DNA of 64,000 bases from Apostichopus japonicus (taxonomy: Eukaryota > Echinodermata > Holothuroidea > Aspidochirotida > Stichopodidae): NCBI RefSeq assembly GCF_037975245.1, contig NC_092576.1, positions 29,242,611 through 29,306,610 of the forward strand. The letters run 5' to 3'. This document shows, piece by piece, positions 23,973-63,887 of this stretch. The notes under the pieces were generated by a model. The model searched no databases and had not been told where the DNA came from. It worked only from the letters and a program-made list of their open reading frames with translations. A program made the position numbers and the translations under genes. Within the stretch, counting starts at the first letter, position 1, and each line of letters begins with the position of its first letter.

Positions 23973-26900
23973 ATGGGTCATGCATGTATGTTCTTACTTC
24001 TTTCATCGATCCTATTGCCAATTGGTAAGTTGCGCTAACAATACCAGATCAAATTCATTTTATTTTACCTGCAAAATGTGTATAGGTTACTAAGGTTGGC
24101 ACTGTTTATAAGAATAAACTAAACTGCATAATAACCTACTGTTTTTATGATTCCTTCAAGTTTTTGTTTTGCATAGTGGGTTCGCTCAGAAATATATAGA
24201 TATGAGGATGAAGATGTCTCATTTACCACGTTTTTCACGTAACATGCACAGGATACAGCGGTGAAAAATTCTGTCGTCCGCAACAAACCCTTGAATTTGG
24301 AAAAAGTGGTGCTCTCGACTGTTCATTTCCAAAAGAATATTTTGGTATTTACTGGTATGATTCTGTGGATGTTACCAAGCAACCACTCTTGTATATCCAG
24401 GAGGGGCAGAAACGTGGCCATGGGTACGAATCTGGGGAGTATGATATACACCCGGATGGTTCCTTGCTGATCTATCGTGTTACCATTGAACACGAAAGGA
24501 GTTTTACAGCCGTTCTCTTTGAAACCAGCATCAGCAACCTGGAACCAAATGAAGTTGTTGTCAATGTATTCGGTAAATCGATCAAGTAATTTTGTTTTGT
24601 TTTCTTCGTTTTTTATCGTTGGTTAAATTAAACTAAAACTTCGTCCAATGCTATGACATATGGATTCTCTTTTGACTTATATTATAGTTCACGACACTTG
24701 ACCAGAACATGAACAAATTGTTTTTTATCTCTAAGTGCCCCATTTTTATTAGTTATATGCTCAATAGATGTAATCAGTCTCTGTTTAAAAGAAAAATTGT
24801 TGAATGGTGCACATTTTATCGCATATGTTAGGCTTATATTTTACAACACACTGATATGCTGTTCACATTTCCTATCTTTCAGCACGCCCTCGAATAACAT
24901 TCCCAGTTATTGACAAATGTATCAATAAACAATATTGTTATCAGCAAATAGAGTGGAACGATACAATAGAATGTACTGTGACTGATGCCCGACCACCTCT
25001 TCAATTATCATGGGTCAAAAGGACGTCTGGTGGTGACTTTGACGAAACTTTTCAGCTTACATATTTCCCCAAAGGCGGATTGAATACAACTATTGCTACC
25101 CTGAAGTTTCAAACGCATTCAAGTGTGCAATTTTATTTCTTTGTGTGTAAAGCTGAGAGCGCAATATCTATCATAGGTAATTCAGATTCGTTCCTGATAG
25201 TCGAGGTAAATATTACACCTATGAAAGAACAAGAAAACATACTCTACCAAGAAGCGAAAAACGGGAGTGTGATGACACTACCATGTGATGTACAAGACGA
25301 CACGATCTTCATTGTATGGAAGAAAAAAATAAATGGAACACGTTACGATGTAAAAGCTTATGGCTACATTAAAACAGGGACGTTCTTTCCAGAGAAACCG
25401 TACAGACTCAACCATGTTGGTGCACTAGTGATTCCTCAGATTAACCACAGTCAAGAGAACGTGTATGTCTGTTACGTAAGTAACGGGATTGAGGAACACG
25501 TCAAAAGTTACAATATAACAATCGGTAAGCTGAGATAAATTTTATATAACTCTTCACAAGATGTAGCTTTGCTAAATAATCTACCACTTGTTTCTATCGC
25601 TTGCTGTATATACCATTGGCATTCATAGGCAAAACTGTTGCAAATATACTCTAACGTGACAAAGGCAATACAATATGTATTCCATGTAAGGTTGAAATGT
25701 ACGTTGTCAATTAGATATTTAGCTGACTTACTTCTATTTATGTTAACATTTTCCACTCATGAAACTTTCTGCATTTCCCTCAGAACCGAGTGCTTCTCAC
25801 TATGACATAACCGTAATATTTAAACTTGCAATTACTTTCTATCACAGAGAACGTCATTGAAGAATTGGATCAGAACAACAAATCATCTGGTGCGATAGTC
25901 ATAACAATATGCCTTGTCTTGCTATGTGTTATAGTAGGAATGGTCTTCGTTTTTATAGGTATTGTATTTGATTTATCATTCCAACTGGGTGTAATAAATA
26001 CATATGTCTCGTTAAGTGAAACTTGCATAGGCGTCACATCAATGTAATCTTCATTGTATTCAAGTAAGATATTTATGTAATTTCGTCACAGAATGCTCAA
26101 TTAGTTTTGAATCGTTTCTTGCATGATACCGCTTTGTACAGATTTTCTACTGATTTTGGCAGCAAACAACACAAGTCTTACTTTTACTTGAATTCTTTTT
26201 TCTCTGTTATAGTGCTTCGAAAGAGGAGGAATAGAACTGAAAGCGAAGACCAAACAGGTAAGGGGATTATAATGATCTAATTCAATAATAAGACTATATA
26301 AATAATATGTATTAAATATTAGACAATTGAGTGACTGTATAATAATTATGAAAACTAATGCTGTAACCTTCCATCGTTGACACAAATGAAATAAGTACCA
26401 TTTTTGTATTAAATGCAATTAATCTGTCCTTACGTTTCGACTGTGGTATATGTAAAGTGACAGATGTTTTGTAGTTGGGGGGGGGGGGGTGTTACATGTT
26501 CAGTGATCAATTCAACCATCTTTTGAATAGCAAACTGTCGTGAACAAATTGGTAACACTATTCGATAACAATTGTACTACTCGTTATTTTTTGCATAATA
26601 CATTAATTTTTACTCCTTTCAGAAAATGTATTGCCGCCTAATGCCTTGGGGTGCTCTGTTATTAAATAATGAACAACAAACAAAGAGGAAACTCCAGACA
26701 TATATATAATTGTAGAGTATTAGCTTTATTGCTGGAGTGTATCTCAAGTACACTCTCTGAAGTCTGGAATCTTAGTCTTCTACATATTAAAAAACTACAG
26801 TATTTAAGTCATTACAACTTCCTGTGAGGGGGCGATAACCTCTCTGTGACATAAACTCTTGGTCTTACTTATAATTACTAAGGCACATAGGAGAGTGCTA

Positions 26901-29900
26901 TGACTAACCTCATTCGTAATACACATGAAATGCAACAGGTTGTCATCTGTGATTCAGCATGAATAGTTCATGGAATTAAGACAAAGGGGGCTTCTACGAA
27001 TATGATGTGGGTGTAGGGTGAATAAGTCATGAACAGGAAGTAAGCAGTTACTCTTAAGACAAAGAGGCATGGAAGCAAATGTTTAAAGTAATATGATGTG
27101 GATATAACTACATACTACATTACAATAATAAGAGGGGGGACTGGAATATGTATTCGGTTACATATATTCTTATGTTTATAGTTTACTTTTCAGAAAAGTG
27201 ATGCAACACATATGATGTACTGATGATTTAATCATTTTGAAAAGTACACAATTGTCAGTAAAAATTCTACAAGTAGCTGACCTCCGTAAAGTAGATTGCT
27301 TCATAGTGCCTTATAAGGATAAATTGGAATATAAATAAGTCGTTTGCTTGCCGTGATAAGCCTTTTGTTCAATACCTTTATGGTAAGTTAACATAACATT
27401 CTCTGTTTGTGAAGTCGAGCTTCAAAAATGATGCAAATTCATAACTATTTTTGCGTGGATGAGACTGATGATTAAAGACAGGTGTGTCAGCAATCCTACG
27501 TTAAATATTACTATCATTTCTATATATTAGTATATAGCTGTCTACGTTGGAAGTCTATTGAACATTTGTACTTCTATTCAAAGAGAAAAGTCAGTTTACG
27601 TTTCAGACGACCTTTGGACACTGACCGTTCCTTTTCAAAGTCTCCATGGAATTATCCTTTATCATGAGTAACATTCCTTGAAAACCTCAAGAACAAATCT
27701 TCGAGAAACGTTAGAGCAATGTTCACACGCTAGTTTGTTTCAACATTAAATGTATACGAATGTGATAAACACATGCTGGCCTCTTCCTCTTTTTGTTTAA
27801 TTTGAACTCTGTCATTTTATTTGACGGTGTGTTCGATGAAAGTTTCCATCGTGGGGTACCACTAAATGTTGATAAACGCTACCCACCCTTGTAGGATGAG
27901 TTTAAAAACAAAATTGTACTATTAAATTACATTTCAGCCTTTCAAACTGGCACCTTTCACTTTAGTTACCATGGAAACACAGTTTTAATAGACTTACCTT
28001 ATATTATTAGATATTGCATGTTAAATAAATATTGCCCCTTGGGATTATAGAAAGATCAAAACTTACACCTATTTGACCTCTGATATTTGAGATTTGTTTC
28101 TGAGGGTCATGTCTTGGGCCAAGTCAGTAACAAGTTTGAAAAAAATCAGTGTAGCTGTTAAGGAGTTTTTTGACAATCTTGCAAACTGTAATCGACACAT
28201 ACAGACTGATGACTCTAATATATGGACTTTCATCTATGGCTATGGTAATGGTTTCTTAACTTAAAGACCGAGCTTACATTCTTGCTTGATTTCAGAAAAG
28301 GGTACCCCCTCTGAAGAGGAACCACTCCGTGATATCAAACAAGAGCTTCAAACTGTATCAGGTATGGCAATTTTACAGTTTTGTCCCATCCGATATTTTC
28401 TCTGCTGGACTATAAAATTCTGATAATCGGCTAATGATCTTTCGTTTAGTATTTTATTTTACATCTAGATTCTTTCAGGAAGGAGTATTGTTGCTAAAGG
28501 TAACTTTGAAGCATGAAATTCGTAAGCCAACATTCGTTGAAATTGAAACGGTTGGGAAGATGTTCTTCAATAGGACTAAACGTTCTTACAAATAATGAGG
28601 TTTTCAGTTTTGAAGAATAGTATGGAAATTTCTAGTACATGACAAAATTCGGAGATAAAGCGTTCAAAATGATGAGATTAATATATGGAAGCCAAATAGT
28701 TTTCCTCTTTCTTTAAGCACGATCTTACATTCCTGTTTGATTGCAGAAACTTGTACCTCATTTGAAAAGGATCCTAAAATCCCGCAGAATCAAACTGAAT
28801 TAGGTATGACAATTTTACAGTTTTCTTCCATCCGATGTTTGCTCTGCTGGAAGATAACGTTCTGGTCACCAGCTCATGATATTTCGTTTAATATTTTATT
28901 TGTCATCTAAATTCTGCAAGGAAGGAATATTGTTGCTGAAGTTAAGCGTGGGGAATTAAACTCGTTAGCCAACATTTTGTTTTATATTGAAATGGTTTCG
29001 AAGAGTTTCTCCAATAAGACTATACGTTCTTACAAATAACAATGGTTTTAGTTAAGAGATAAGGCTTTCAACATTTTAAGAAGAATGAATGAATGAATGA
29101 ATGACTAAATGAATGAATGAAGGAAAGTTTATGCACAACCACTACCTTGCAACACAAGATTTGCACGGTCGTGCTGAAACCAAAATACAAAACTGGAGAA
29201 ATTTAACAATTACAAATAACATTACTTAGCATTTGAATTATTGAAATAAGTATAATGATTAACAAAAAGATAATGTGTGGGAAGTTTATTGAAACAGTTG
29301 ATAGAAAGAATACTCCGAAGATGAACGTATGAATTCAAATGCATTTCTTTCTTCTTTAAGCACGAGCTTTCATTCTTGTTTGATTTCAGAAACTTGTACC
29401 TCCCCTGGAAAGGAACCCCTCGATGATAGAAACCCACAGACTCAAACTGAATCAGGTACGACAATTTAAAAACAATTTTAGATTTAAGCTGTATTCAAGA
29501 GGTTCTTCAATAAGACCACAAGTAGTGAGGTTTCAGTTTCGAGATCCATTATGAGTTAACGACATCATTCAGAGATAATACGTCACGAAATTGAAAGCTG
29601 AAACAGAAAAGATCAAAAGTTCAATCTAAACGTAAATACCCTGGCTATGACTGAAAATATGTTGGGCAAAATAAGATCAGTTACAGATAAAATGTCAATT
29701 TCAAGACATAAAACATCAGAAGTTCCAGATAAACCTTGATTGTTTAACGGAATACTCAAGCAAAGGTCAAAATTCAACATGAAAAAGTTGGATGTCCTCC
29801 CCAACACCAGCTCTGATTGGTACTTTATCGAAAGTGTTTATATCAAGAGAACCAGCCAATTCACACGGAGATTACAGTAACTATTGTAAAGTTTTGGACC

Positions 29901-32088
29901 ACAGTAAAAACTGGATCGTGCTGACAAATCTGATAAATCGGTAGCATGTGCTATATGGATTACAGTAAGAACAGGATATGTTTAATCCCAAAAAATCCCC
30001 AAAACTTGATTTGTTGGAATTACACATATCCTCAGTTCTAACTGTAATCATAATAACACATGCTACCGATTTATAGCACGATCCAGTTTTTACTGTGGCA
30101 CAAAACTTTAAAACTTACAGTAGTAACTGTGTTCTTTTTGTCTGTCGGGTGAGAGAACAGAACAATTGCGCTAGTACTTATTGCTTGAATTTCACTGCGT
30201 ACGAATCTTAACACGACCAGTCGATTTCTCAAGCCCAACCCAACCAACTGAAAATATATAATTAAACAAGATTTTTCTCTGATCGGACTGAAAATTATTT
30301 ATAGCATAGTATACCGTACATTCGTCACATGGCTAAGTCTAAAAATTTCTCTCAATTACATTTAACAAGGATTTGTGAGTCTTCAGGGCGGGGAGCAGAT
30401 TTTTGTTTACTTAGGCTGCATCTTGTCTTTAAGTGTTAATATCAATGCCCATTAAATTTACTAACCAGTAACAATAGCCACCTCCCCCCCCCCCTCCCTT
30501 CCACTACCAAACCACACACACGCACACACACACATTTTTAAGCTGATGATTGCCACGCAAGTGTAACCCATTTATTGTAAGTTTGGATGAACCCAAGATA
30601 TCACATTTGTATAATAAAGTGCATCTTCTCTCGATAGGTAACCTAAACCATCAAGATGAAAACCAGTCGAAAAAACAACATGAGAATCCAGAGCATGGCA
30701 AAATCCAGGTTCATCAAAGCAACATCCAAATAAAGAAATATGTTGTTGGCAGTGAAAAACTTGATCGTGAAGAAAAAATTATCTTCTTAATTGATGGCAG
30801 TAATGTTGATATAGATGCAATTGCGTTCATTTTGTTAAAATATGTTACAGGAGTCAAGAATAAGGATCATTTCAGCTGTGACGTCAAATGTCTGGATAAC
30901 AATCAAACACTGCAAAGTTGTGGAATTGAAATGCAGATATGTACCATCAAAGATAAGTTGTCGTCAGAATTGCCATTTGATATTACCTTCGTAATTATAC
31001 CTGTGTCAATGAGTGATTCGGGAGGAACAAGGAGTACAGCATTTGCAACCGATACGACAAGCATCGGGGACACAAAAGATCCGAACGATACATCTAAAAC
31101 AAGTTCGAGTGACGCAACCATGCAAGAGAAGATAACGTTCGCAACAGATTCAGCAAGCGCAATTGACTTTCAAGAAATAACAGAACAACTTCACACACTT
31201 ACAACATGTGAAGACATGTACAAATTGGAATACGTTAATGCGGTAGTAATATTACAAGAAAGCACTCAAGAGCAGTCATTCTCTTTAGGGGACTGTTTGC
31301 ATAATACTGTATGCAGAATACTTGGCCAAAATTTGCGCGAAAAGTTATTCGCCATGACAGCGTGTAATACGAAAGAGGAATTTGACGCTTTCAAAACGAA
31401 AGGAAGTATCGAATGTCCCACCCACATTTACTTTGCATTAAAACATAGATCATTTCAAAGAAAATCGAGTAAAGTAGTTTTTTATGGAGAACAAAGTAAG
31501 AGCAACTTTAAGAACTTCATAGAAAAGTTTAAAAATGAATCACACGTTAGTCTTGACCAAAGCATGCAGGTTTTAGGTAAACGTAAAGATCTAGTAGTTG
31601 CTATTTCAACAATTGAAGAAAGCATGGCAGCAAGAAGAGAAATATGTAACGAGACGACAGAAGGAAAACATCTGATTAATACCACTGGGATCAAAGTTTC
31701 CATTGAACATGGAGGAAAGGCTTTAAACTGTATGAAATGTAAAAATACCTGTACCTATCCTGTTGCTTCCAAAACATGGTCCTACTTCTCAGATAGTTGT
31801 AATGTTTGTAAATGTGACACTCGCCATCATCACGAGTGCTCATATAGGTTCAAAACTGAAGACGAAATCGAAAAAGAAATGTGTGACAAAGAATTGTCCT
31901 TACAACTTCAGGTCCGTACAAAGGCTGAGGAAATCGACAGTTATCTGGACTTTCTTAACAAATTTGCGTTGAAACCAACTGTTTTGTCTGTTGATGGAAA
32001 TGCTCAGAATATAACAATAACAGAAAATGCAAGTGAAGGAAGCGAGTCGAACGATTTTCTAACCAATTTCAATGATATATTTCAGTAA
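23973..32088 (+). CDS. R2A: three-Ig transmembrane receptor with a degenerate P-loop NTPase-like cytoplasmic tail (936 aa)
   Basis: Exons: 23973-24024 (signal peptide 'MGHACMFLLLSSILLPIG'), 24252-24572 (Ig1), 24883-25524 (Ig2 and Ig3), 25848-25958 (transmembrane, 'IVITICLVLLCVIVGMVFVF'), 26213-26257 (basic 'LRKRRNRTES'), 28296-28361, 28747-28803, 29390-29455, 30638-32088 (tail, TAA). All junctions are phase 1, and the exons sum to 2811 nt with no stop. Ig1 has its first Cys and Trp ('YWYDS') but no second Cys ('ERSFTAVLF'). The tail resembles a P-loop NTPase family of aquatic animals that ends in a Cys-rich module. Here the Walker A position reads 'LIDGSNVDIDA' and the DTPG position 'VIIPVS', so nucleotide binding is unlikely. 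The Cys/His module ('NCMKCKNTCTYP', then 'SCNVCKCD') is kept. Predicted at the cell surface; ligand unknown. The domain homology of the tail is inference. Confidence 0.8.
26623..26690 (+). other. Possible alternative terminal exon of R2A
   Basis: After the acceptor 'actcctttcag' a phase-1 frame reads 'ENVLPPNALGCSVIK' then TAA. Copy B has the same acceptor and 'ENALPPN' at 37642. Use of this exon would give a membrane receptor with a short tail and no NTPase-like domain. In copy A the sequence after 'LPPN' comes from an insertion. Confidence 0.3.
26643..27124. mobile_element. ~480-bp insertion in copy A, unclassified
   Basis: Copy B reads straight through 'gccgcctaatataatgag', whereas copy A is interrupted after 'gccgcctaat' and resumes at 'taataagag'. 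A short TAAT flank is shared. No coding sequence is visible. It could be a short non-autonomous element or an LTR fragment. Confidence 0.55.
28296..29455 (+). repeat. Three homologous phase-1 mini-exons in the R2A cytoplasmic linker
   Basis: Exons of 66, 57 and 66 nt encode related peptides (first 'EKGTPSEEEPL', second 'ETCTSFEKDPK', third 'ETCTSPGKEPLDD'). Their surrounding introns are also similar, for example 'agcacgagctttcattcttgtttgatttcag' variants and 'ttctgc.aggaaggaatattgttgct'. This is an internal exon-plus-intron triplication, present in both gene copies. Confidence 0.75.
29863..30132. mobile_element. Foldback (MITE-like) element in the last intron, copy A
   Basis: The left arm contains 'ccacagtaaaaactgg', 'aaatcggtagcatgtg' and 'cagtaagaacaggatatg'. 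The right arm contains the inverted complements ('catatcctcagttc', 'cacatgctaccgattt', 'ccagtttttactgtgg'). The arms nearly fill the element, as in foldback MITEs. It is also present in copy B, so it predates the duplication. Confidence 0.7.
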
Positions 32089-32211
32089 GAGTTTCATATT
32101 TGATAGAATGTGACTATTGAAAGATCTTTGGATGGGATAACAGCAACACGAATTTTAGACACTGATGTTAATTGCACCCTGTATCGACAATTTGAAGATA
32201 CCTCACATTCG

Positions 32212-33475
32212 AACTTACAAACCGATGCCTCAAATTTTGGAATTGGGGCTGTTCTCAGTCAAACAGGTAAGGATGGGAAAGAACATCCCGTTGCTTACAT
32301 AAGTCGTAAATTGTCAGAGAGAGAACAAAGATTTAGCGTACCCGAAAAAGAAGCCCTGGCAATCATTTGGGCTGTCGCTAAACTGAAGTATTTTCTGATT
32401 GGTGTCAGGTTCAAAACTTTCACAGACCACCAAGCTCTAAAATGGCTGGAAAAAACCAAAGGCTCAAATAATAGGCTGTTGAGATGGTTATTGGCTTTAC
32501 AGCAATTCAGTTTTGATGTGCAGTACAGGAGGGGAAGCTCAAATGGCAATGCTGATGGTCTCAGCAGAATGTAAAGTCTATTACCTTTCGAGTGTATTGA
32601 GTGTGTATAACTTCACATACTGTGTATATATTGTGTAAATTGTGTACTTTGTCAATGATTTCAAATTATTTCAGTTATTTCAGATTAACTCCAAGGCTAT
32701 ATACCTTTCGAGTGTATTGAGTGTGTATAACTTCACATACTGTGTATATATTGTGTAAATTGTGTACTTGTCAGTAATTACAAATTATTTCAGTTATTTC
32801 AGATTAACTCCAAGGCTATATACCTTTCGAGTGTATTGAGTGTGTATAACTTCACATACTTTGTATATATTGTGTAAATTGTGTACTTTGTCAGTAAATT
32901 CAATTGTATTTGTAGTAGAGGTTGTTGTTGAGTGGATTAACTCTCACTCTTGTAAAAAGTGTATGTAAATGATGGTACAGGGTTTGGTTGGATTTGTTTT
33001 GTGTACATAGGGTTCGTAAGGATTAAGTTTTAAGGTAAAAGAAGACTGACACAGTCTTTCGGGGAGGAGGGGCATGTTGTGAAGTCTATAAGTAAGGATA
33101 GGAAAGCTGCTTATGTCCTAGGGATAGCTTAAGGGGATTACAAGGCTGGGATTACTTTGTACGTAAAGACTTGCTAATAGGATTAAAGGATAGAGCTAGA
33201 GATGAGGAGAGGGCTTACGGGCAGTTGGACTGTGGCTTTTGTGAGGTGAGGAGCCAAGGTATTAGGAGACGAGAAAAGGAGAGAAGCGTAAGGGAGTGTG
33301 GGAAGATAGCGAGGATAGTGTTGCAAGGAAGCAGAGGTTGTTTAAGGAAAATTGATGTGAAGGAATTGTGAAAGGAAGCAGTGGAATTATGTGGAGCTAT
33401 GTGGAGTTTGAAAAATAAAGGAAGAAAAGCAACGAATGACACTTTCTTGAACTTATTACCCCACACTACGTAACA
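32212..33475 (+). mobile_element. 5'-truncated Ty3/gypsy element: RNase H, tandem repeats, polypurine tract, 3' LTR
   Basis: A frame to 32574 encodes gypsy RNase H with all acidic landmarks: 'LQTDASNFGIGAVLSQ', 'VPEKEALAIIWAV', 'FTDHQALKWLE' and 'NADGLSRM' then a stop. There is no integrase after it. Then come three ~120-bp repeats, a polypurine tract 'ggggaggagggg', and a 401-bp LTR (33075-33475) starting TG and ending CA. The element starts exactly where copy A homology ends and stops where copy B begins. Confidence 0.9.
32582..32900. repeat. ~120-bp tandem repeat, 2.7 copies, inside the gypsy fragment
   Basis: 'tacctttcgagtgtattgag' recurs at 32582, 32702 and 32821. The copies are nearly identical, so the array is young. 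Confidence 0.9.
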
Positions 33476-35035
33476 GTCAATTTGAGTATCGATACCAGAC
33501 GAATTTACATTTCTTGATGCTAAAGAGAAATGAGTCTCTAAGCTCATTCCCAACGATAGTGTTTGTTAAACATTGTCTCAGTATCTTGGTTAAATTCAAC
33601 ACGAACCAGTTAGTGTCTATGGAGAGAACACGAAAAGGCTAGGGAGCACGGTACTTCAGTAACTGCGCGAGTACCAACCATCAACTGTAGGCTATGTGGC
33701 GTATACGAGGCGTGTATATGAAAACAAGCACAAACTAGTTCATCCGTAGTACGCTGTATATAATTATAAATAGAGCGGAAGCTTAACTGGAGACTATTGT
33801 CTTGAAAAAGTTCTTTGTGTCCACTAGAAATGAATGCCGTGCATATTGCAGTGTAACTGTAGATACATATATGTTGTTTCCAATAAATGCCGTTTTCTAA
33901 TTTGCTATTACCGATAGAAGTAGACCTGCATTAACTACATAGTGAACGATGACGGAAAACATCTGATGACACGATGAATAGTTAAAGTCCGAAAATGAAG
34001 TGTAATCGCACGAACTAACATAATACTGACAAACATCGCTGTAATACCGATATTTTTCCTTTTCTTTTCTTAAGTAATCCCTCTGCTAGATTTCAAGTTT
34101 TACAAAAAAATATATTTCGACAGGTACAGCTGAAATCTTCAACTATAATTTCAGGCTTACGTGTTTATTTTGGAAATATCGACTAAAAGTCAAACTTTAA
34201 ACGGTTCAAAGTTTGATGTTTTAGCAAAATGTCCTCTTTTTGTAGAAGTATTGGAGAGAAAGGCGATAAAACATGGATGAAGTTAGTGTACCCGAGATTC
34301 ATCATGTGACAGTTAAATGTATATGTATTTACTATGAGTTCATCAAGTGCAATTGTATCTTCATATATTTCTGGTAGAATAATAACATGTATATGAACAG
34401 TAGAAAACTGCCTAGAAAATGATAGCAAAATGGGAAAGTTTTAAGCAATTTCTATCTCAACCCTGGCTACAGGGAATTTGCCACAAAATATTCGCTAGAT
34501 TGATCAGTTTGTATAGCGCAGTGATTGTAATCTTGGGGTCAATGGGTCAGATCTCGTCCTTTCCAAAAGTTCATTTGTACTTTTCAGCATCACTAACATA
34601 TGAATTCTGCAGTTAAGATTATTTTATATACTGACAAAGTCCATGTCCTATCATCTCCGTTATTTAATTAACATAAAATATATATCTACATTCGTGCCTG
34701 CTTGCGTGACTCGTCTGTTTGAGTTGACAATATCAATACTCACCCTCGTTCCAAAGTTCAAGCACCAATAAAAACCGCCATAGGCCTACATGCAATAAAC
34801 ATGCAGTCTAACAGTAACATACTTAGTTCATGCCTATCGTTATTATTAAGTTGTCACTGATACAGACTGATTATACTTGTTCTGTTTCTACTAATGTTCA
34901 CACCGTACAACATTCAATACCTAGTAATATAGTTCTTAGTAGTAATACAGAATAATAGTAAAAAATATGATATCAAAAATAAAATAAAATATCCTTTCCA
35001 TTTTCATACCTCAGAACCAAAACATTATTTGCAAG

Positions 35036-38000
35036 GTGGGTCCTGCATGTATGTTCTTACTTCTTTCATCGATCCTATTGCCAATTGGTAAGTTGCGCTA
35101 ACAATACCAGATCAAATTCCTCTTATTTTACCTGCAAAATGTGTATAGGTTACTAAGGTTGGCACTGTTTGTAAGAATAAACTAAACTGCATAATAACCT
35201 ACTGTTTTTTATGATTCCTTCAAGTTTTTGTTTTGCATAGTGGTTTCGCTCAGAAATATATAGATATGAGGATGAAGATGTCACATTAACAACGTTTTCA
35301 CATAACATGCACAGGATACAACGCTGAACAATTCTGTCGTCCGCAACAAACCCTTGAATTTGGATAAAGTGGTGTTCTCGACTGTTTATTTCCAAAAGAA
35401 TATTTTGGTGTTTACTGGTATGACTCTGTGGATGTTACCAAGCAACCACTCTTGTATATCCAGGAGGGGCAGAAACGTGGCCATGGATACGAATCTGGGG
35501 GGTATGATACACACCCGGATGGTTCCTTGCTGATCAATCGTGTTACCATTGAACACGAAAGGAGTTTCGCAGCCGTTCTCTTTATAACCAGAATCAGCAA
35601 CCTGGAACCAAATGAAGTTGTTGTCAATGTATTCGGTAAATCAATCAAGTCGTTTTGTTATATATCGTAGTTTATCGTTGGTTAAATTAAACTAAAACTC
35701 TGTCCAATGCAATGACATATGGATTCTCTTTTGACTTATATTATTGTTCTCGACACTTGACCAGAACATGAACAATTGTCAACCAATCATCAACTACTTA
35801 TGAAAGAAACAATAGGTGTAGGGAATTGTTTTTTATCTCTTAGTGCTCCATTATATTAGTTATATGCTCAAAAGATGTAATCAGTCTCTATTAAAAAGAA
35901 AACTTGTTGAATGGTGCACATTTTATCGCACATGGTTGGCTTATTGTTTACAACACACTGAACTATATGCTGTTCACATTTCCTTTCTTTCAGAACGCCC
36001 ACGAATAACATTCCCGGTTATTGACAAATGTATCAATAAACAAAATTGTTATCAGCAAATAGAGTGTAACGATACAATGGAATATACTGTGACTAATGCC
36101 CGACCACCTCCTCAATTATCATGGGTCAAAAGGACGTCTGGTGGTGACTTTGACGAAACTTTTAAGCTTACATTTTCCCCTAAGGGCGGATTTTATACAA
36201 CTACTGCTACCCTGAAGTTTCAAAAGCATTCAATTTTGCAATTTTATTTCTTTGTGTGTAAAGCTGAGAGCGCAATATCTATCATAGGTAATTCAGATTC
36301 GTTCCTGATAGTTGAGGTAAATATTACACCTATGAAAGAACAAGGAAACATACTCTTTCAAGAAGCGAAAACGGGAGTGTGATAACACTACCATGTGATG
36401 TACAAGACGACACGATCTTCATTGTGTGGAAGAAAAAAGTAAATGGAACACGTTACGATGTAATAGCTTATGGCTACATCAAAACAGGGACGTTCTTTCC
36501 AGAGAACCCGTACAGACTCAACCATAATGGTGCACTGGTGATTCCTCAGATTAACCAGAGTCAAAACAACGTGTATGTCTGTTACGTGAGTAACGGGATC
36601 GAGGAACACGTCAAAGGTTACAATTTAACAATCGGTAAGCTGAGATAACTTTTATATAACTCTTCACAAGATTTAGCTTTGCTATTTAATCTACCACTTG
36701 TTTCTATCGCTTGCTGTGTATACCATTGGCATTCATAGGCAAAACTATTGCAAACATGCTCTAACGTGACAAAGGCAATACAAAGTGTATTCCAAGTAAG
36801 GTTGAAATGTACGTTGTCAAGTAGATATTTAGCTGACTTAATTATAATTCTGTTAACATTTTCCACTCGTGAATCTTCCTGCATTTCCATCAGAACCGAG
36901 TGCTTCTCACTATGACATAACCGTAATATTGAACCTTGCAATTACTTTCTATCACAGAGAACGTCATTGAAGAATTCGATCAGAACAACAAATCATCTGG
37001 TGCGATAGTCATAACGATATGCCTTGTCTTACTATGTGTTATAGTAGGAATGGTCTTGGTTTTTATAGGTATAGTATTTGATTTATCATTCCAAATGGGT
37101 GTAATAAATACATATGTCTCGTTAAGTGAAACTTGCATAGGCGTCACATCAATGTAATTTTAATTGTATTCAAGTAAGATTTTTATGTAATTTCGTCAGA
37201 GAATGCTCAATTAGTTTTGAATCGTGTCTTGCATAGTACCGCTTTGTACAGATTTTCTACTGATTTTGGCAGCAAACTCTAACACAAGTCTTACTTTAAC
37301 TTGAATTCTTTTTCTCTGTTCAAGTATTTCGAGAGAGGAGAAATATAACAAAAAGCAATGACCAAACAGGTAAGGGGATTTCATTGATCTAATTCAATAA
37401 AAAGACTATAGAAATAATACGTAACAAATATTAAACAAATGCTGTAACCTTCCTTCCTTGACACAAATGAAATAAGTACCATTTTTGTATGAAATGCAAT
37501 TAATCTGTCCTTACGTTTCGACTGTGGCATATGAATAGCAATATGAATAGCAAACGGTTGTGAACAAATTGGTAACACTATTCGATTACAATTGTACTAT
37601 ACGTTATTTTGTCATCATACATTAAGTTTTACTCCTTTCAGAAAATGCATTGCCGCCTAATATAATGAGAAAAAATACTAGAATATGTAAACGGTTACAT
37701 ATATTCTTATGTTTATAGTTTACTTTTCAGAAAAGTGATGCAACACATATGATGTTCTGATGATTTAATATTTTGCAAAGTACATTATCGTCAGTAAAAA
37801 GTCTAAAAATAGCTGACCTCCGTTAATTACATTGCTTCATACTGCCTAATTAGGATAAATTGAAATATAAATGAGTCGTTTGTTTGCTGTGGTATGCTTT
37901 TTGTTTCAAAACCTTTATTGGAAAGTTAACATAACCTTCTTTATTTGTGAAGTCGAGCTTATAAAAAATGATGCAAATTCGTACAATTTTTGCGTGGATG

Positions 38001-41000
38001 AGACTGACGATTAAAGACAAGTGTCAGCAATCCTACGTTAAATATTACAATCCTTTCTATATATTAGTATAAAGCTGTCTACGTTGGAAGTCTATTGAAC
38101 AATTGTACTTCTATTCAAAGAGAAAAGTCATTTTGCGTTTCAGACGACCTTTGGACACTGACCGTTCCTTTTTAAAGCAATTTTCACACGCTAGTTTGTT
38201 TCAACATGTATACGAATGTGATAAACACATGCTAGCCTATTCCTCTTTTTGTTTAATTTGAACTTTGTCATTTTATTTGACGATGTGTTCGATGAAAGTT
38301 TCCATCGTAGGATACCACGAAATGTTGAAAAACGCGACCCACCCGTGTAGGATGAGTTTAAAAACAAAATTACCCTATTACATTACAGCCTTTCAAACCG
38401 GCACCTTTCAATTTAGTTACCTTGGAAACACAGATTGTGGAAACACATATTTAATAGACATACATTCCACTAATTATATTATTAGATACTGCATGTTACT
38501 TAAATATTGCCCTTAGAGTTATAGCAGGATCAAAACTTACACTTATTTGACCTCTGATATTTGAGATTTGTTTCTGAGGGTCATGTCTTGGGCCAACTCA
38601 GTACCAAGTTTGAAGAAAATCAGTGTAGCTGTTAAGGAGTCTCTTGACAATCTTGCAAACTGTAATAGACACAAACAGACGGATGACTCTAATATATGGA
38701 CTTTCGTCTATGGCTATGGTTTCTTACCTTAAAGACCGAGCTTACATTATTGCTTGATATCAGAAATGGGTACCCCCTCTGAAAAGGAACAACTCAGGGG
38801 TAGCAAACAAGAGCTTCAAACTGAATCAGGTATGGCAATTTTACAAATTTGTCCCATCCGATATTTTCTCTGCTGGACTATGAAATTCTGATAATCGGCT
38901 CATGATCTTTCGTTTAGTATTTTATTTTACATCTAGATTCTGTCAGGAAATAGTATTGTTGCTAAAGGTAACCTTGAGGCATGAAATTCGTAAGCCAACA
39001 TTCGTAGAAATTGAAACGGTTGGGAAGATGTTCTTCAATAAGACTTAACGTTCTTACAAATAATGAGGTTTTGAGTTTTGAAGAATAGTATGGAAATTTC
39101 TAGTAGATGACAACATTTGGAGATAAAGCGTTCACAAGGATGAGATTAATATATGGTAGCCAAATATTTTTCCTCCTTCTTTATGCACGATCTAACATTC
39201 CTGTTTGATTTCAGAAACTTGTACCTCCTTTGAAAAGGATCCTAAAATCCCTCAGAATGAAACTGAATTAGGTAAGACAATTTTACAGTTCTGCTCTGCT
39301 GGAAGATAAAGTTCATCAGCTCATGATCTTTCGTTTAGTATTTTATTTGTCATCTAAATTCTGCGAGGAAGGAATATTGTTGCTAAAGTTAAACGTGGGG
39401 AATTAAATTCGTAAGCCAACATTTGTTTACAATTGAAATGGTTTCGAAGAGGTTCTCCAATAAGACTATACGTTCTTACAAATAACAATGGTTTTAGTTA
39501 AGATATAAGGCGTTCAAAAGTTTAAGATGAATCAATGAATGAATGAATGAAAAGTTTATGCACAGCCACTACCTTGCAACACAAGATTTGCACGGTCGTG
39601 CTTTTGCACGGTCGTGCTGAAACCAAAATACAAAACTGGAGAAATTTAACAACTACAAAATGACATTACTTAGCATTCAACTTATTGAAATAAGTATCAT
39701 GATTAACAACAAAAAATAATGTTTGGGAAGTTTATTAAAACGGTTGATAGAAAGAATACTGCGAAGATGAATGTATGAATTCAAATATATGTATTTCTTC
39801 TTTAAGCACAAGCGTTCATTCTTGTTTGATTTCAGAAACTTGTACCTCCCCTGGAAAGGAACCCCTCGATGATAGAAACCCACAGACTCAATCTGAATCA
39901 GGTATGACAATTTAAAAACAATTTTATCCGAGAGTTTGCTTTGCGCGAGCAATGCAAATATAGTCATCAGCTCAGAATCTCTAAATTTTGTGTTTTATTG
40001 AATGCTGAAAGAGAAAAGATCAAAAGTTAAATATAAACGTAAATGTGCTGGCTATGAGTGGAAATATGTTGGGCAAAATAAGATCAGTGAAAGATCAAAT
40101 GTCAAATTCAGGACATAAAACATCAGAACTTCCAAATAAACCTTGATTGTTTAACGGAATACTCAAGCAAAGGTCAAAATTCAACCTGAAAATGTTGGAT
40201 GTCCTCCCCAACACCAGCTCTGATTAGTACTTTATCGAAAGTGTTTATATCAAGAGAACCAGCCGATTCACACGGGGATTACAGTAACTACCGTAAAGTT
40301 GTGGACCACAGGAAAACTGGATTGTGCTGACAAATCTGATAAATCGGTAGCATGTTCTTTATGGATTATAGTAAGAACTGAGGATATGTGTAATCCCCTC
40401 TCCCCCCCCCCCAAAAAAAACATTGATTTGTTGGAATTAAACATATCCTCAGTTCCTATTGCAATCATAATAGCACATGCTACCGATTTATAGCACGATC
40501 CAGTTTTTACTGTGGCACAAAACTTTAAAACTTACAGTAGTAACTGTGCTCTCTTTGTCTATCTGGTGAGTGAACAGAACAATTGCGCTAGTACTTATTG
40601 CTTAACTTTCACTGCGTACGAATCTTAACACGACCAGTCGATTTCTCAAGCCCAACCCAACCAACTGAAAATGTATAATTAAACAAGATTTTTTCTCTGG
40701 CCGGACTGGAAATTATTTAAAGTATAGTATACCGTACATTCGTAGCATGGCTAGGTCTAAACATTTCTCTTAATTACATTTAACAAGGATTTGTGAGTCT
40801 TCAGGGCGGGGAGCAGATTTTTGTTTACATCGGCTGCATCTTGTCTTTAAGTGCTAAGATCCATGCCCATTAAATGTGCTTACCGGTAACAATAGCCCCC
40901 CCCCCTCCCACTACCAAACCACACACACACACACACATTTTTAAGATGATTTCCACGCAAGTATAACCCGTTTATTGTAAGTTTCGATTAACACAAGATA

Positions 41001-42476
41001 TCACATTTGTATAATAAAGTGCATCTTCTCTCGATAGATAACCAAAATCATCAAGATGAAAACCAGTCGAATAAACAACATGAGCATGGCGAAATCCAGG
41101 ATCATCAAAACAACATCCAAATAAAAAAATATGTTGTTGACAGTGAAAAACCTGATCGTAAAGAAAAAGTTATCTTCTTAATTCATGGCAGTAATATTGA
41201 AATAGATGCAACTGCGTTCGTTTTGTTAAAATATGTTACAGGAGTCAAGAATAAGGATCATTTCAGCTGTGACGTCAAATGTCTGGATAACAATCAAACA
41301 CTGCAAAATTGTGGAATTGAAATGCAGATATGTACCCTCAAAGATAAGTTGTCGTCACAATTGCCGTTTGATATTACTTTCGTAATTATACCTGTATCAA
41401 TGAATGGTTCAGTTGGAACAAGGAGTACAGCATTTACAACCGATACTACAAGCATGGAGGACATAAAAGATTCGAACGATACACCAGTCACGGTTGCTAA
41501 AACAGGTTCGAGTGACGCAATCATGCAAGGGAAGATAACGCATGCAACAGATGCAGCAAGCGCATTGGACTTTAAAGAAATAACAGAACAACTTCACACA
41601 CTTACTACATGTGAAGACACGTACAAGTTGGAATACGTTAATGCAGTAGTGATACTACGAGATATCACTCAAGAACTGTCATTCCCTTTGGAGGCTTGTT
41701 TATATCATCCTGTATTTAAAATACTTGGCAAGAATTTGCGAGATAAAGTAATCGCCATGATAGCCTGTAACACAAATGGAGAATTTGACGATTTCAAAAC
41801 AAAAGGAAGTATTGAGTATCCTTCCCATGTATTCTTTTCATTGAAAAATAGTTCATTTAGTTTTTATGGAAAACAAAGTGAGAGAAATTTTAAAAACTTC
41901 AAAGTAAAGGTAAAAAATGAATCACCCGTTAGTCTTGAACATAGCATGCAGGTTTTAAGAAAACGAAAAGATCTAGTAGCTGCTATTTCAACAATTCAAG
42001 AAAGCATTGCAGCAGAAAGAAAAATTAGTAACGAGGCTACAGAAAACTACAAACAACACCTGGTTAATACTAGGGGTATCAAAGTTTCTATTGGAACTGA
42101 AAAATTGGCTTTAAACTGTATCAAATGCAAACATACTTGTATCTATATTGTTGCTTCCAAGATATCGTCCGTCTTGTCATATAGTTGTAATGTTTGTAAA
42201 TGTGACACTTGCAATCATCAAGAGTGCTCGTATAGGTTCAAAACTGAAGAGGAAATCGAAAAAGAAATGCGTGACAAAGAATTGACCTTACAACTTCAGG
42301 TCCGTACAAAGGCTGAGGAAATCGACAGTTATCTGGACTTTCTGAACGAATATGCGTTGAAACCAACTGTTTTGTCTGTTGATGGAAATGCTCAGAATAT
42401 AACAATCACAGAAAATACAAGTGAAGGAAGCGAGTCGAAAAATTTTCTAACCATTTTCAATGAGAAATTTGTGTAA
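35036..42476 (+). pseudogene. R2B: second copy of the Ig receptor, ectodomain broken, tail exon intact
   Basis: Exons equivalent to R2A: 35036-35087, 35315-35635, 35994-36634, 36958-37068, 37325-37369, 38764-38829, 39215-39271, 39836-39901, 41038-42476. The first ATG is GTG (35036); an in-frame ATG at 35051 could still give a shorter leader. Ig1 has TAA at 35365-35367 where copy A has a Lys codon. The Ig2/Ig3 exon is 641 rather than 642 nt, because one A is lost near 36370, which shifts the frame and hits TGA. The transmembrane, linker and 479-codon tail exons remain open, with the Cys/His module kept and the Walker A position equally lost ('LIHGSNIEIDA'). Full-length receptor cannot be made; a tail-only product would need another promoter or start. 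Confidence 0.8.
40272..40551. mobile_element. Foldback (MITE-like) element, copy B
   Basis: Orthologous to 29863-30132, with the same inverted arms. The loop has gained a C/A homopolymer run. Confidence 0.7.
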
Positions 42477-45600: not shown

Positions 45601-45923
45601 TTATTGTAAAGGTGAAGGATCATATTTTTCACCGTATCGACTTTTCTCTTCTTTTGACCGCGTTCCTGTTTCCTTTACCTCAGCAACATTTCGTTTCTAG
45701 TAAAAAACATTCCATCTGATCACAATGTTTTTAAAGCTCATATGAAGGAATTCTATTTACCGCCATCGTAAACTTTAAAATATGTCGTTATTGTGTCAAT
45801 AAATAAGGTCGTTTGTTGTAAGCTTTGGCAGTTAAGTTTAACAACCATTCATAAATGACAAGCTGCTCATTGTTTTCCCAAACTAAGCACGCGTAAATTC
45901 TTTGGTGTTAAGAAGTCGTGAAA
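42607..45923. other. Long intergenic stretch before R3
   Basis: A 139-codon frame at 43450-43869 spans a poly(C) tract and ends with a hydrophobic stretch ('VGVMVMFMVV') close to AATAAA, but it has no domain, signal peptide or splice context I can defend. A C-run lies at 43502-43518. Otherwise nothing is recognised. The R3 promoter should lie in the last few hundred bases; I see no convincing TATA element there. Confidence 0.4.
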
Positions 45924-59340
<13,417 letters not shown>

Positions 59341-60865: not shown

Positions 60866-63784
60866 TCATTGTACAAACATTTCTGAAATTGTCCTGAATT
60901 TGAGCGAATTACCGAGAGATATACCTTCTTCCGCGATCGTGTTCCTTTTCATGCCGTCCTCACTTTGTAACACCTGCCGTAATAATTTACAAACCTCTTC
61001 CGCAATTCGAAGTTCGCTGCAACCTTGGCATTCCAAAATACTTAGACGACCATTCGTTCTTATTGTTGGGAGACTTGGATATCGTTCACTAGACGTTACA
61101 ACTACAATAACATTAGTGTTTTTGCAGAGTTCCACTATATTTGGTAAAAACATCTGCCGATTATCATTTTCAATGAATGCAATCAGCACAGTCGCATATT
61201 TGCAGACAAATTGTCTTTGGGTGGCTGAAGAGTCCCGATTACAGCATCCTCGTAGGTTCATTACACACATTGCTTTGTTCAGTGTAGTGTCCGATTGGTA
61301 TGTGTCTTCTACTGGCAGATACCATGCGGCCTCTAGCATCCCTCTCGAGTAGACTGATAAAAAATTGTCTTCGTTAGGGATAAGGAAAAAGTCATGTCCC
61401 ACGCAACTTTGGACCTTACCGAACATCGTATTAATCACACTCGACTTTGAAAGTTTACTTTCACCAAACTTAACAGCTGCAACTGTTGGAAACGGATAAT
61501 GAGTGGCACTACCTTCTTTCAGCCTCCCCCTTTCAAACCAAGTGAAGTTCAAATGGTAAAGTTCCATAAAAGTCATCATGATTGTTTCACTGCTGTCTCC
61601 CGGATATGGCAAGAGTATCGGAACAGCAAACTGACATGCAGCCATTTTAAGGATCAACATCAACCTTACGTTGAAATCGGACGAAAGAAATATGGCGTAC
61701 AGTGCGTCGCGACAACTGATGCCGCTGTTTGTATTTGTATAACTAGTAAGATCGGTGAACCAATTCACTGCACTTTGGCTTTCGTATTTTTTAAAGAAAG
61801 TCCTGAACACAGAGAAAGCTCGGAGGTCATTGGATAATATCCGAGCGAAGAAAATTGTTACAAGGTTATCGATATTTAAATCTCTCGTTGCATATGTTGA
61901 GTTCGTAGCATTCGATACGTCCTCTAGACATAACAGACCATATGTTAACATTCGATCGAGACCAATCTTCCTCCTTATCTCAGTCAGTATGTTTCGATTA
62001 AACCGATCCATACAGTAAAGTTGTGAACCTGAAAAGTAAAAACAAGCACATCCAAATACAGCAGAATACAAATAGTTCAAGAGAATATTACGGTATATAT
62101 TTAGTCATTTGCAACTACTATGGTAACGCATCTCAACTTTGTTAATCATTTGCATAATAGTCACTTTGGGTTTGGTGTAGGAGCTTCCACTTATATGAAG
62201 AACGCATGGCTTATTTACTTTAATAAACGAGACTATTATAACTTCATTTACTTCAAAAGTCAGTGGATTCGAATAAACATTTAGAGAAATGACTACATTG
62301 TTCGCCAATTGTACAGAAGAAATAATGAGTGATAAAGCAATGAACTAAAAGAGTACCGGAATAGTGTTAATATCCAATTCGGCACTCTTCTTCGGTAAAA
62401 TTATAGCTGAAGTCAGTCGAGGAAGTATTTCCATACTTGAACTCAAGGCTTTGCATCAACAAATTACTCTATCCAATGAGATTTTCCAGTGTTCATTCTC
62501 GTATTAGAGATTTTACTCATATTCATCCGGATATATGGTCTCGATAAAATGCTGGACCTTCAAGCCTAAAAACGCAAAGACGTTAAATCTAACTTACCCT
62601 GTACAGAGTGCGCTATTTCATGTTGATATTGTTTCACGTACTGTGAAGCAATGTTCAGCCCTGAACTGCTTAGAATAGCCTCCAAGTATGATACGTTGTT
62701 CCGTGAGATTTTATGTACTTTTTCGAGATACTTTACAAATTCTATAATGGGACTCTTTGATTGTATAATATTTAGTTTAGGATCACTAGGCGTGGCTTCA
62801 TTTGCTATCATGATTTCCACTGTTTCTTTGGAAATACACCGGCTGAGATTGTAAAGTAAAAAGCTGTACGGACTTATTTCAACGTCTATGTGTAATCCAA
62901 TTGGAGACATCAGAAATTTTCCTGAAACATAAATTGGATTGTTTTAATTGTAAAAGAAGGTAAAAAGTTATCTTTAAAACATCTTTATGAGATAAAACAT
63001 AAATTATATATTATTTAATTATGTATACCTGGCTGTAACAAATATGCGTTAAGTTTTGGCCAGGCTTCCAGTTCCTCTTATGCTAGTCAGAAGCTTACAG
63101 TTGAATGCACGTCAATGATAATCTTTCAAAATGACAATTGTCTTTTTTCAACTTTACAAACATAGACAAATAAACTATTCATAACTATGACTTCTCACTT
63201 ACAAACTATAAAAAAAAGGCCAGGTTTCAGGGGGAAAACTCTGAATGAAACACAAAGGTAACTCGCACCGAGAGTGAAACACCTAGGGAAACACGCGTAA
63301 TTCTATTCCCAGTATATTTTAAACATAGCCCTTTATTTCTTCATGTTGACATTCGTTCACCTAATAATCTTCTTCTTTGTTGATGGTTGCTTTTTTTTGG
63401 TCGTTAATATGTACACCGGCAACTAAAAGTTAAACGAAAAGCATGGATGCATTATGAATCCAAACTTACCTTCGTGTAATTTACTCTTTTGTATTTCTGT
63501 TTCGTATTGATTTAGGTAGACCAACGCAACTAATAAATCCTTGAATAAAGTTTTCAAGAGCGATACGTCTCGTCTGGTGATTCGTCTGCGTGTCTCTAAA
63601 TGTTTGATAAACTCAATGGTTGGGTTTCGTGAATGCATTACATGATCCATTTTACTCTGTGTAATCCATAACTCTATATGCTGTCTCGTCATGATTTCAT
63701 GTATGACTTGCTTTGGGACGCACCGACTCAAGTTATACAGTAGAAATGTAAACGGTTGTATTTCTGGTAATTCGTTGATGGTAT
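60866..63784 (-). CDS. Two death-effector-like domains plus VLIG/URGCP-like GTPase region (3' exons, 5' end beyond window)
   Basis: Exons in transcription order: 63784-63470, 62921-62598, 62028-60866 (TGA). All junctions are phase 1. Exons 1 and 2 encode related death-effector-like folds ('PFTFLLYNLSRCVPKQVI' and 'PYSFLLYNLSRCISKETV'; 'FIKHLETRRRITRRDVSLL' and 'FVKYLEKVHKISRNNVSYL'). Exon 3 matches the URGCP/VLIG family: 'LMLILKMAACQFAVPILLP', 'FPTVAAVKFGESKLSKSSV', 'HDFFL', 'AAWYLPVE', 'MNLRG', then 'VLIAFIENDN' and 'NVIVVVTSSERYP' as later strands of the G-like fold. The P-loop-like site reads GESKLSKS, lacking the GKS glycine. The protein stops soon after this domain, much shorter than vertebrate VLIGs. 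Probably cytosolic, linking a death-fold adaptor to a GTPase-like module. The 5' exons lie right of the window. Confidence 0.8.
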
Positions 63785-63887
63785 CTGTAACAGAAAAGGT
63801 ACATATTCTAGCTTTAAGCAGCAAGTAGTCTTCACGGATAACATATCTTTTAAAGTATTACACGGGGAGGGAATGTGTTTTTACTAA

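What the first reader, a model, noticed from the sequence alone, without database searches (positions are those of the whole stretch)
23973..32088. Ig-domain membrane receptor whose cytoplasmic tail is a dead P-loop NTPase with an intact cysteine module
Seen: a continuous 936-aa, nine-exon model with leader, Ig domains, transmembrane helix and a 483-codon tail. Known: a P-loop family in aquatic animals has Walker A, DTPG, a 'VL.eR..L' helix and a C-terminal 'C..C...C.YP ... C.VC' module. Inferred: the tail is a member that lost Walker A ('GSNVDIDA') and DTPG ('IPVS') but kept the Cys module and helical part. A transmembrane Ig receptor fused to such a pseudo-NTPase is an architecture I do not know as described.
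Basis: partly seen in the sequence, partly recalled or inferred. Interest (0 to 1): 0.87.

Follow-up and report, generated by a model that had tools for sequence, protein, structure and literature searches.

The report
Immune receptor with dead GTPase tail
An echinoderm gene appears to encode a cell-surface antibody-like receptor whose inner part descends from a GTP-using switch protein but has lost the GTP-binding motifs; sister genes carry working-looking versions or other NTPase modules in the same place, so these receptors seem to swap their inner signalling parts.

Summary
A nine-exon, 936-aa reading frame (leader, V-set, two more Ig domains, transmembrane helix, short linkers, 483-codon tail) is in the window, with GT-AG sites and only phase-1 introns. 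The Ig-TM-tail order recurs at six loci in one chromosome region. The tail descends from a septin/AIG1-like P-loop GTPase family: two of six loci keep Walker A and DTPG, one is intermediate, three (this gene, a window duplicate, a third copy) lost both. The cysteine module is reduced (6 of 8 family cysteines), not intact. The fold could not be tested (AlphaFold pLDDT 31).

The kind has a precedent: sea-cucumber AjNLRC4 is a published Ig-TM-NACHT receptor, and here 42 of 150 related Ig exons are followed by a NACHT exon. Two more Ig-TM loci end in a URGCP exon. Each of 13 tail exons inspected offers a phase-1 acceptor. Best reading: Ig-TM receptors with exchangeable NTPase tail exons; this subfamily took a septin/AIG1-like tail, which then lost its nucleotide site. 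Transcripts, localisation and function are untested. New variant of a known kind.

The parts
23973..24024 (+). exon 1, leader peptide (MGHACMFLLLSSILLPI...)
   Evidence: ATG, hydrophobic stretch, GT donor, phase 1; signal peptide by eye, no predictor run
24252..24572 (+). exon 2, V-set-like Ig domain
   Evidence: Pfam V-set E 0.001, under cut-off; splice sites phase 1
24883..25524 (+). exon 3, two Ig domains
   Evidence: Pfam C2-set_2 1.8e-5 and Ig_3 6.8e-6; 150 scored related places in the genome
25848..25958 (+). exon 4, transmembrane helix
   Evidence: 19-residue hydropathy 3.3; phase 1; 96% and 93% identical DNA in copies B and C
26213..26257 (+). exon 5, basic juxtamembrane linker
   Evidence: counterpart in B and C
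28296..28361 (+). exon 6, cytoplasmic linker
   Evidence: counterpart in B and C
28747..28803 (+). exon 7, cytoplasmic linker
   Evidence: counterpart in B and C
29390..29455 (+). exon 8, cytoplasmic linker
   Evidence: counterpart in B and C
30638..32088 (+). exon 9, 483-codon tail: septin/AIG1-like GTPase homolog without Walker A and DTPG, reduced Cys/His module
   Evidence: hhalign 98.6%, E 7e-16 against intact paralogs; motif alignment
34965..42476 (+). tandem copy B: leader start codon lost, stop in V-set exon, frame shift in 2-Ig exon; tail frame 40992-42476 open

Best explanation
The gene most likely encodes a type I cell-surface receptor of the echinoderm Ig-TM-NTPase kind. Shown by sequence: a leader, V-set plus two Ig domains, one TM helix and a tail that descends from a septin/AIG1-like P-loop GTPase with a C-terminal Cys/His module; the Ig-TM-tail order at six loci; nucleotide motifs kept in two paralogs, part-kept in one, lost in three; related Ig exons followed by NACHT exons at many loci and by URGCP exons at two. 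Inferred: the ectodomain binds a microbial or cell-surface ligand on coelomocytes, as published for AjNLRC4; the terminal exon is an exchangeable signalling module; the dead tail works without GTP hydrolysis, as a scaffold that pairs through its G-domain-like surface or Cys module with intact paralogs or downstream proteins and modulates them.
For: Gene model and phases; six-fold recurrence; homology and motif loss; septin/AIG1 class of the intact paralogs (Septin cut-off passed by 4 of 4, AIG1 by 2 of 4; PDB septins); six C16 tails one clade, 99/98; open frames against expectation; 42 of 150 Ig exons with NACHT downstream, controls 0/0/0, shifted mean 0.69; URGCP tails; published function of AjNLRC4 (PMC8699970, PMC11932488, passages read).
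Against: No transcript. The tail finds no Pfam or PDB family by itself and gave no fold. Tail DNA is no more conserved between copies (0.86, 0.89) than aligned introns (0.90, 0.90); omega 0.62-0.77 with p 0.013, 0.05 and 0.26 for the three dead-tail pairs, so constraint is weak. Copy B's ectodomain is broken and copy C's leader was not found, so only gene A of the three looks whole. The partner/scaffold step has no evidence of its own.
Confidence: 0.6

Rival explanations
1. Two adjacent genes: an Ig-TM gene that ends in a short tail and a separate downstream pseudo-GTPase gene, duplicated together.
For: No transcript joins them here; an alternative terminal exon (from 26623) could end the Ig-TM gene early.
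Against: The tail frame of gene A has no Met before residue 98, behind the pseudo-P-loop, and L005 and L006 have none before their Walker A (L007 has three); each tail offers a phase-1 acceptor; three in-frame linker exons between TM and tail recur in A, B and C; the same order recurs at 6 of 6 C16 places. The alternative exon is cut by an A-only stretch and only its first 20 of 48 bases align in B and C.
Confidence: 0.15
2. A decaying gene: the tail is a relic drifting to pseudogene, without function in the receptor.
For: Motifs lost, Cys module reduced, copy B's ectodomain broken; tail DNA changes as fast as introns; omega of B-C not different from 1.
Against: All three frames open where 6-8 stops would be expected by random placement; omega below 1 for A-B (p 0.013) and borderline for A-C (p 0.05).
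Confidence: 0.2
3. The tail is unrelated to P-loop GTPases; the resemblance is confined to cysteines and helices.
For: Direct Pfam and PDB searches find nothing; no fold from AF2.
Against: Profile comparison covers residues 29-465, G1 region included; L004 matches both sides (4e-16 to the tail, 1.3e-25 to an intact paralog).
Confidence: 0.05

Closest known systems
AjNLRC4 and AjNLR-new of the sea cucumber Apostichopus japonicus (PMC8699970, PMC11932488, PMC13133943; passages read)
   Same: Ig-like plus Ig domains, transmembrane segment and a P-loop NTPase domain in one echinoderm protein; AjNLRC4 has its NACHT inside the cell. Related Ig exons in this genome are followed by NACHT exons.
   Different: NACHT (STAND class) instead of a septin/AIG1-like domain; AjNLRC4 is reported with two TM segments; its NACHT is not reported dead. 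Its sequence is not held, so direct relation was not tested. AjNLR-new is reported with the NACHT outside the cell.
Chiridota heheva NLRs with V-set domain (PMC8913654, passages read)
   Same: V-set with NACHT in a holothuroid; [quoted passage not shown]
   Different: NACHT, not septin/AIG1-like; among 6 NLRs 'with other domains'.
AIG1/GIMAP and septin GTPases; snail AIG genes with TM (PMC7053062, passages read)
   Same: The intact paralogs pass Pfam cut-offs for Septin (4 of 4) and AIG1 (2 of 4).
   Different: The window tail passes none and lacks G1 and G3. The snail paper reports no signal peptide on any AIG gene and the word immunoglobulin does not occur in it.
C8/C20 members of the same P-loop family in this genome
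   Same: Same G domain and Cys module, motifs intact.
   Different: No listed Ig exon within 15 kb upstream (0 of 8); L010 has fn3 and a stonustoxin-type helical domain in front.

Membership tests
septin/AIG1-like P-loop family with Cys module (as aligned here) | homology over most of the domain | tested here: met
   hhalign 98.6%, E 7e-16, residues 29-465
septin/AIG1-like P-loop family with Cys module (as aligned here) | Walker A (G1) GxxGxGKT | tested here: not met
   GSNVDIDA in A, GSNIEIDA in B and C; GETGAGKT in L006 and L007
septin/AIG1-like P-loop family with Cys module (as aligned here) | DTPG (G3) | tested here: not met
   IPVS, or DTTS if the gap is placed as; neither is DTPG
septin/AIG1-like P-loop family with Cys module (as aligned here) | eight Cys plus His module | tested here: not met
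   6 of 8 Cys and the His kept
septin/AIG1-like P-loop family with Cys module (as aligned here) | C-terminal GWxDR motif | tested here: not met
   present in L006, L007 and the C8/C20 rows, absent in A, B, C and L005
septin/AIG1-like P-loop family with Cys module (as aligned here) | P-loop fold | tested here: inconclusive
   AF2 pLDDT 30.9, two-row alignment; no fold search made
AjNLRC4-type Ig-TM-NACHT receptors | Ig ectodomain related to those of NACHT-tailed genes | tested here: met
   2-Ig exon finds exons that precede NACHT exons, e.g. C12:25015594 E 2.5e-20
AjNLRC4-type Ig-TM-NACHT receptors | transmembrane segment between Ig domains and tail | tested here: met
AjNLRC4-type Ig-TM-NACHT receptors | NACHT domain | tested here: not met
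   no NACHT hit in the tail at E up to 1
AjNLRC4-type Ig-TM-NACHT receptors | direct sequence relation to AjNLRC4 | not testable with these tools
   its sequence is not held

The most novel reading that the evidence does not exclude
Echinoderm Ig-TM receptors are a modular system: one ectodomain and membrane cassette takes, through a phase-1 intron, a single terminal exon from at least three NTPase classes (NACHT, septin/AIG1-like, URGCP/VLIG-like), and nucleotide-dead tails such as this one act as regulatory partners of active ones.
Probability: 0.4. Interest if true: 0.8.

Novelty: new variant of a known kind. Interest (0 to 1): 0.6.

Why it matters
If true, surface Ig receptors of an echinoderm change their intracellular NTPase class by exchanging one exon, which would tie the separate histories of NLRs, septin/GIMAP-like GTPases and VLIG-type proteins to one receptor family. 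The graded series (two intact, one intermediate, three dead paralogs in one chromosome region) makes the role of nucleotide binding in such receptors directly testable.

Tried and rejected
Direct Pfam and PDB searches with the tail gave no family. AF2 of the tail with the two window copies gave pLDDT 30.9; I made no fold search with it, and I did not hand in paralogs from the genome search because the tool's description names only window proteins and loci of other tools. The 18S search to place the organism failed by machine error; mitochondrial COX1 read with table 9 was used instead, which fits an echinoderm and names no class. A Death-domain search was run for context and not used. Paper searches: DUF8206 (a recalled name, none); Ig with GTPase/AIG1/GIMAP, Ig or NACHT in sea cucumber, VLIG/URGCP, stonustoxin with septin: they led to the AjNLRC4 papers and to nothing on a septin/AIG1-like or URGCP tail. 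I rejected 'unrelated tail' and 'intact Cys module'. Copy B was left out of the Ig tree (its exon is broken). Of the 15 tree rows labelled 'other', three proved to have NACHT exons downstream and two URGCP exons, two showed neither in about 7 kb, and 8 were not inspected; that label therefore does not mean 'no NTPase'.
Full report
WHAT IS THERE. The nine-exon, 936-aa model is in the sequence at the given coordinates; all introns are GT-AG and phase 1. Pfam sees V-set (E 0.001, under cut-off) and Ig_3/C2-set_2 domains, and exon 4 encodes a strongly hydrophobic segment. The window holds a second copy B at about 34.97-42.48 kb. Its tail frame is open, but its ectodomain is broken: changed leader start codon, a stop in the V-set exon and a frame shift in the 2-Ig exon. 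A third copy C lies at C16:29202300-29211300; all exons but the leader were found there, short linkers weakly.

THE GENOME. The window is G000:C16:29242611-29306610 in a 671.6-Mb assembly of 35 contigs. A mitochondrial COX1 reads sensibly with the echinoderm code (AAA=Asn, AGA=Ser; judged by eye against conserved COX1 positions that I recall). Holothuroid is my guess from the published occurrence of V-set/NACHT proteins, not a test.

WHAT THE TAIL IS. Searched alone, the tail finds no Pfam family over a cut-off (best E 0.096) and one PDB chain at E 0.89. In its own genome it finds two close copies (81% and 76%) and L004 (32%, E 4e-16). L004 in turn finds loci with full GETGAGKT and IDTPG (L006 1.3e-25, L007 6.3e-25) and members on C20 and C8. 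Of four such intact members, 4 pass the Pfam cut-off for Septin and 2 that for AIG1, and a profile of the four finds septins and Toc34 in the PDB (best E 6.7e-5). Profile against profile, the three dead-tail copies align with the four intact members over residues 29-465 with probability 98.6 and E 7e-16. In a 10-row alignment the Walker A place reads GSNVDIDA in A, GSNIEIDA in B and C, SESGAGKP in C16_5 (L005), GETGAGKT in C16_6 and C16_7. DTPG is lost in A, B and C whichever way the gap is placed (IPVS or DTTS) and is DLPE in C16_5. The Cys module keeps 6 of 8 family Cys and the His, with a shorter loop; a C-terminal GWxDR motif is gone in A, B, C and C16_5. The six C16 tails form one clade against C8/C20 (99/98) and the dead three a clade inside it (100/100); the program warns that long branches meet in that tree.

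IS IT ONE GENE? All 6 of 6 septin/AIG1-like places on C16 have a same-strand Ig exon 2.8-7.9 kb upstream; none of the 8 places on C8 and C20 has one of the 150 listed Ig exons within 15 kb (14 places in all). The six are related by duplication, so they are not six independent events; the chance figures are rough and treat them as independent. Besides the A-B-C group, the three other C16 loci have V-set, 2-Ig, TM and tail exons in order. The tail frame of gene A has no Met before residue 98 of the exon, behind the pseudo-P-loop; L005 and L006 have none before Walker A, L007 has three. A phase-1 acceptor lies near the 5' end of 13 of 13 tail exons inspected: 6 septin/AIG1-like, 2 URGCP, 5 NACHT; 5 of the 13 also show a candidate in another phase, so single cases are weak evidence. 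Transcripts could not be examined.

THE LARGER FAMILY. The 2-Ig exon has 150 scored matches of 270 candidates, 112 of them on C16 (copy B counts twice). NACHT gave 106 scored of 488 candidates. Of the 150 Ig places, 42 have a scored NACHT exon within 15 kb downstream on the same strand (39 distinct of 106; median distance 3.4 kb). The three other geometries gave 0, 0 and 0, and 1000 random shifts gave a mean of 0.69 and a maximum of 6 (lengths of contigs other than C16 were taken as 30 Mb). The list is incomplete: of five unpaired Ig loci whose downstream 7 kb I fetched (L062-L066), three have a NACHT frame of 524-559 aa (Pfam 8e-12 or better) and two show none. 101 of 150 Ig places had neither partner in the lists; apart from those named here I do not know their tails. 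Two further Ig-TM loci end in a URGCP exon: C16:29080910/29088114 (URGCP 1.3e-20; TM exon; its 2-Ig exon only C2-set_2 E 0.001) and C16:29320198/29316566 on the minus strand (URGCP 1.1e-36, V-set 1.5e-7, Ig_3 6.8e-7; TM exon). Inspected NACHT tails keep a Walker A, e.g. GEPGYGKST in L059.

HISTORY. In a tree of 40 Ig exons (5 of 6 septin/AIG1-tailed, copy B left out; 20 of 42 NACHT-paired; 15 of 101 unpaired) the five group with the URGCP-tailed C16:29080910 exon at 98/94, and that exon sits inside the group (99/93). Holding the five alone together is not rejected (AU p = 0.094). One fusion followed by a change to URGCP is possible but not shown. For the intact pair C16_6/C16_7 the tails differ little (dS 0.21) while the Ig exons differ much (dS 1.68, near saturation): tail conversion or fast ectodomain change.

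SELECTION. Pairwise ML omega of the tail: A-B 0.62 (p 0.013), A-C 0.66 (p 0.05), B-C 0.77 (p 0.26), L6-L7 0.73 (p 0.077); 2-Ig exon A-C 0.72 (p 0.26). The tail is no more conserved in DNA (0.86, 0.89) than the aligned introns (0.90, 0.90). The frames nevertheless stay open where 6-8 stops would be expected by random placement. I read this as a coding exon that changes fast under weak constraint; relaxed decay is not excluded.

MECHANISM. Shown by sequence: anatomy, homology, loss of nucleotide motifs, recurrence. Inferred by analogy: AjNLRC4 is reported to bind microbes through extracellular Ig domains, dimerise, be internalised and contact actin through its NACHT domain (PMC8699970, passages read), and to bind caspase-1 through its Ig domains (PMC11932488, passages read). 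The present receptor would keep the recognition part and carry a G-domain-like scaffold in place of NACHT. Septins and GIMAPs pair through G domains and include members with weak or no hydrolysis (recalled, no call), so a dead tail that pairs with intact paralogs is the mechanism I consider most likely, at about 0.3-0.4 for that last step alone.

NOVELTY. The kind Ig-TM-NTPase is published for sea cucumber, so 'not described' fails for the kind. For the septin/AIG1-like tail, its dead form and tail exchange I found no paper in the searches; the library lacks most subscription journals.

Noticed in passing
C16:29080910-29088767 (L061) and C16:29316566-29322700 (L067/L068, minus strand): Two Ig-TM loci whose terminal exon is a URGCP (VLIG-type) domain instead of NACHT or a septin/AIG1-like domain.
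   Followed up: partly
window 60866-63857 (-): A URGCP exon (E 1.2e-35) with a DED-like exon at 62566-62943 (E 2.6e-4, under cut-off); a listed Ig exon lies 15.9 kb upstream, with the URGCP exon at C16:29316566 in between.
   Followed up: partly
window 45912-47220 (+): Another Ig gene (Ig_3 1.1e-4 under cut-off; C2-set_2 1.3e-4 over cut-off), not in the list of 150; its tail was not sought.
   Followed up: no
window 26643-27124: A stretch of about 480 bases in gene A without counterpart in copies B and C; it cuts the possible alternative terminal exon that starts at 26623.
   Followed up: no
window 32107-32574: Open frame of 155 aa just behind the tail stop that looks by eye like the RNase H part of a retroelement polyprotein (no family search made).
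   Followed up: no
L010 (C8:15206412 region): Members of the P-loop family on C8 lie in long frames with fn3 and a stonustoxin-type helical domain in front of the GTPase part.
   Followed up: partly
C7:3.1-12.3 Mb: A group of NACHT exons, most with frames of 510-512 aa, that are not paired with the listed Ig exons.
   Followed up: no
C16:28541584 and C16:28612699 (L017, L018): The two loci with intact P-loop tails have near-alike tails (dS 0.21) but very different Ig exons (dS 1.68).
   Followed up: no
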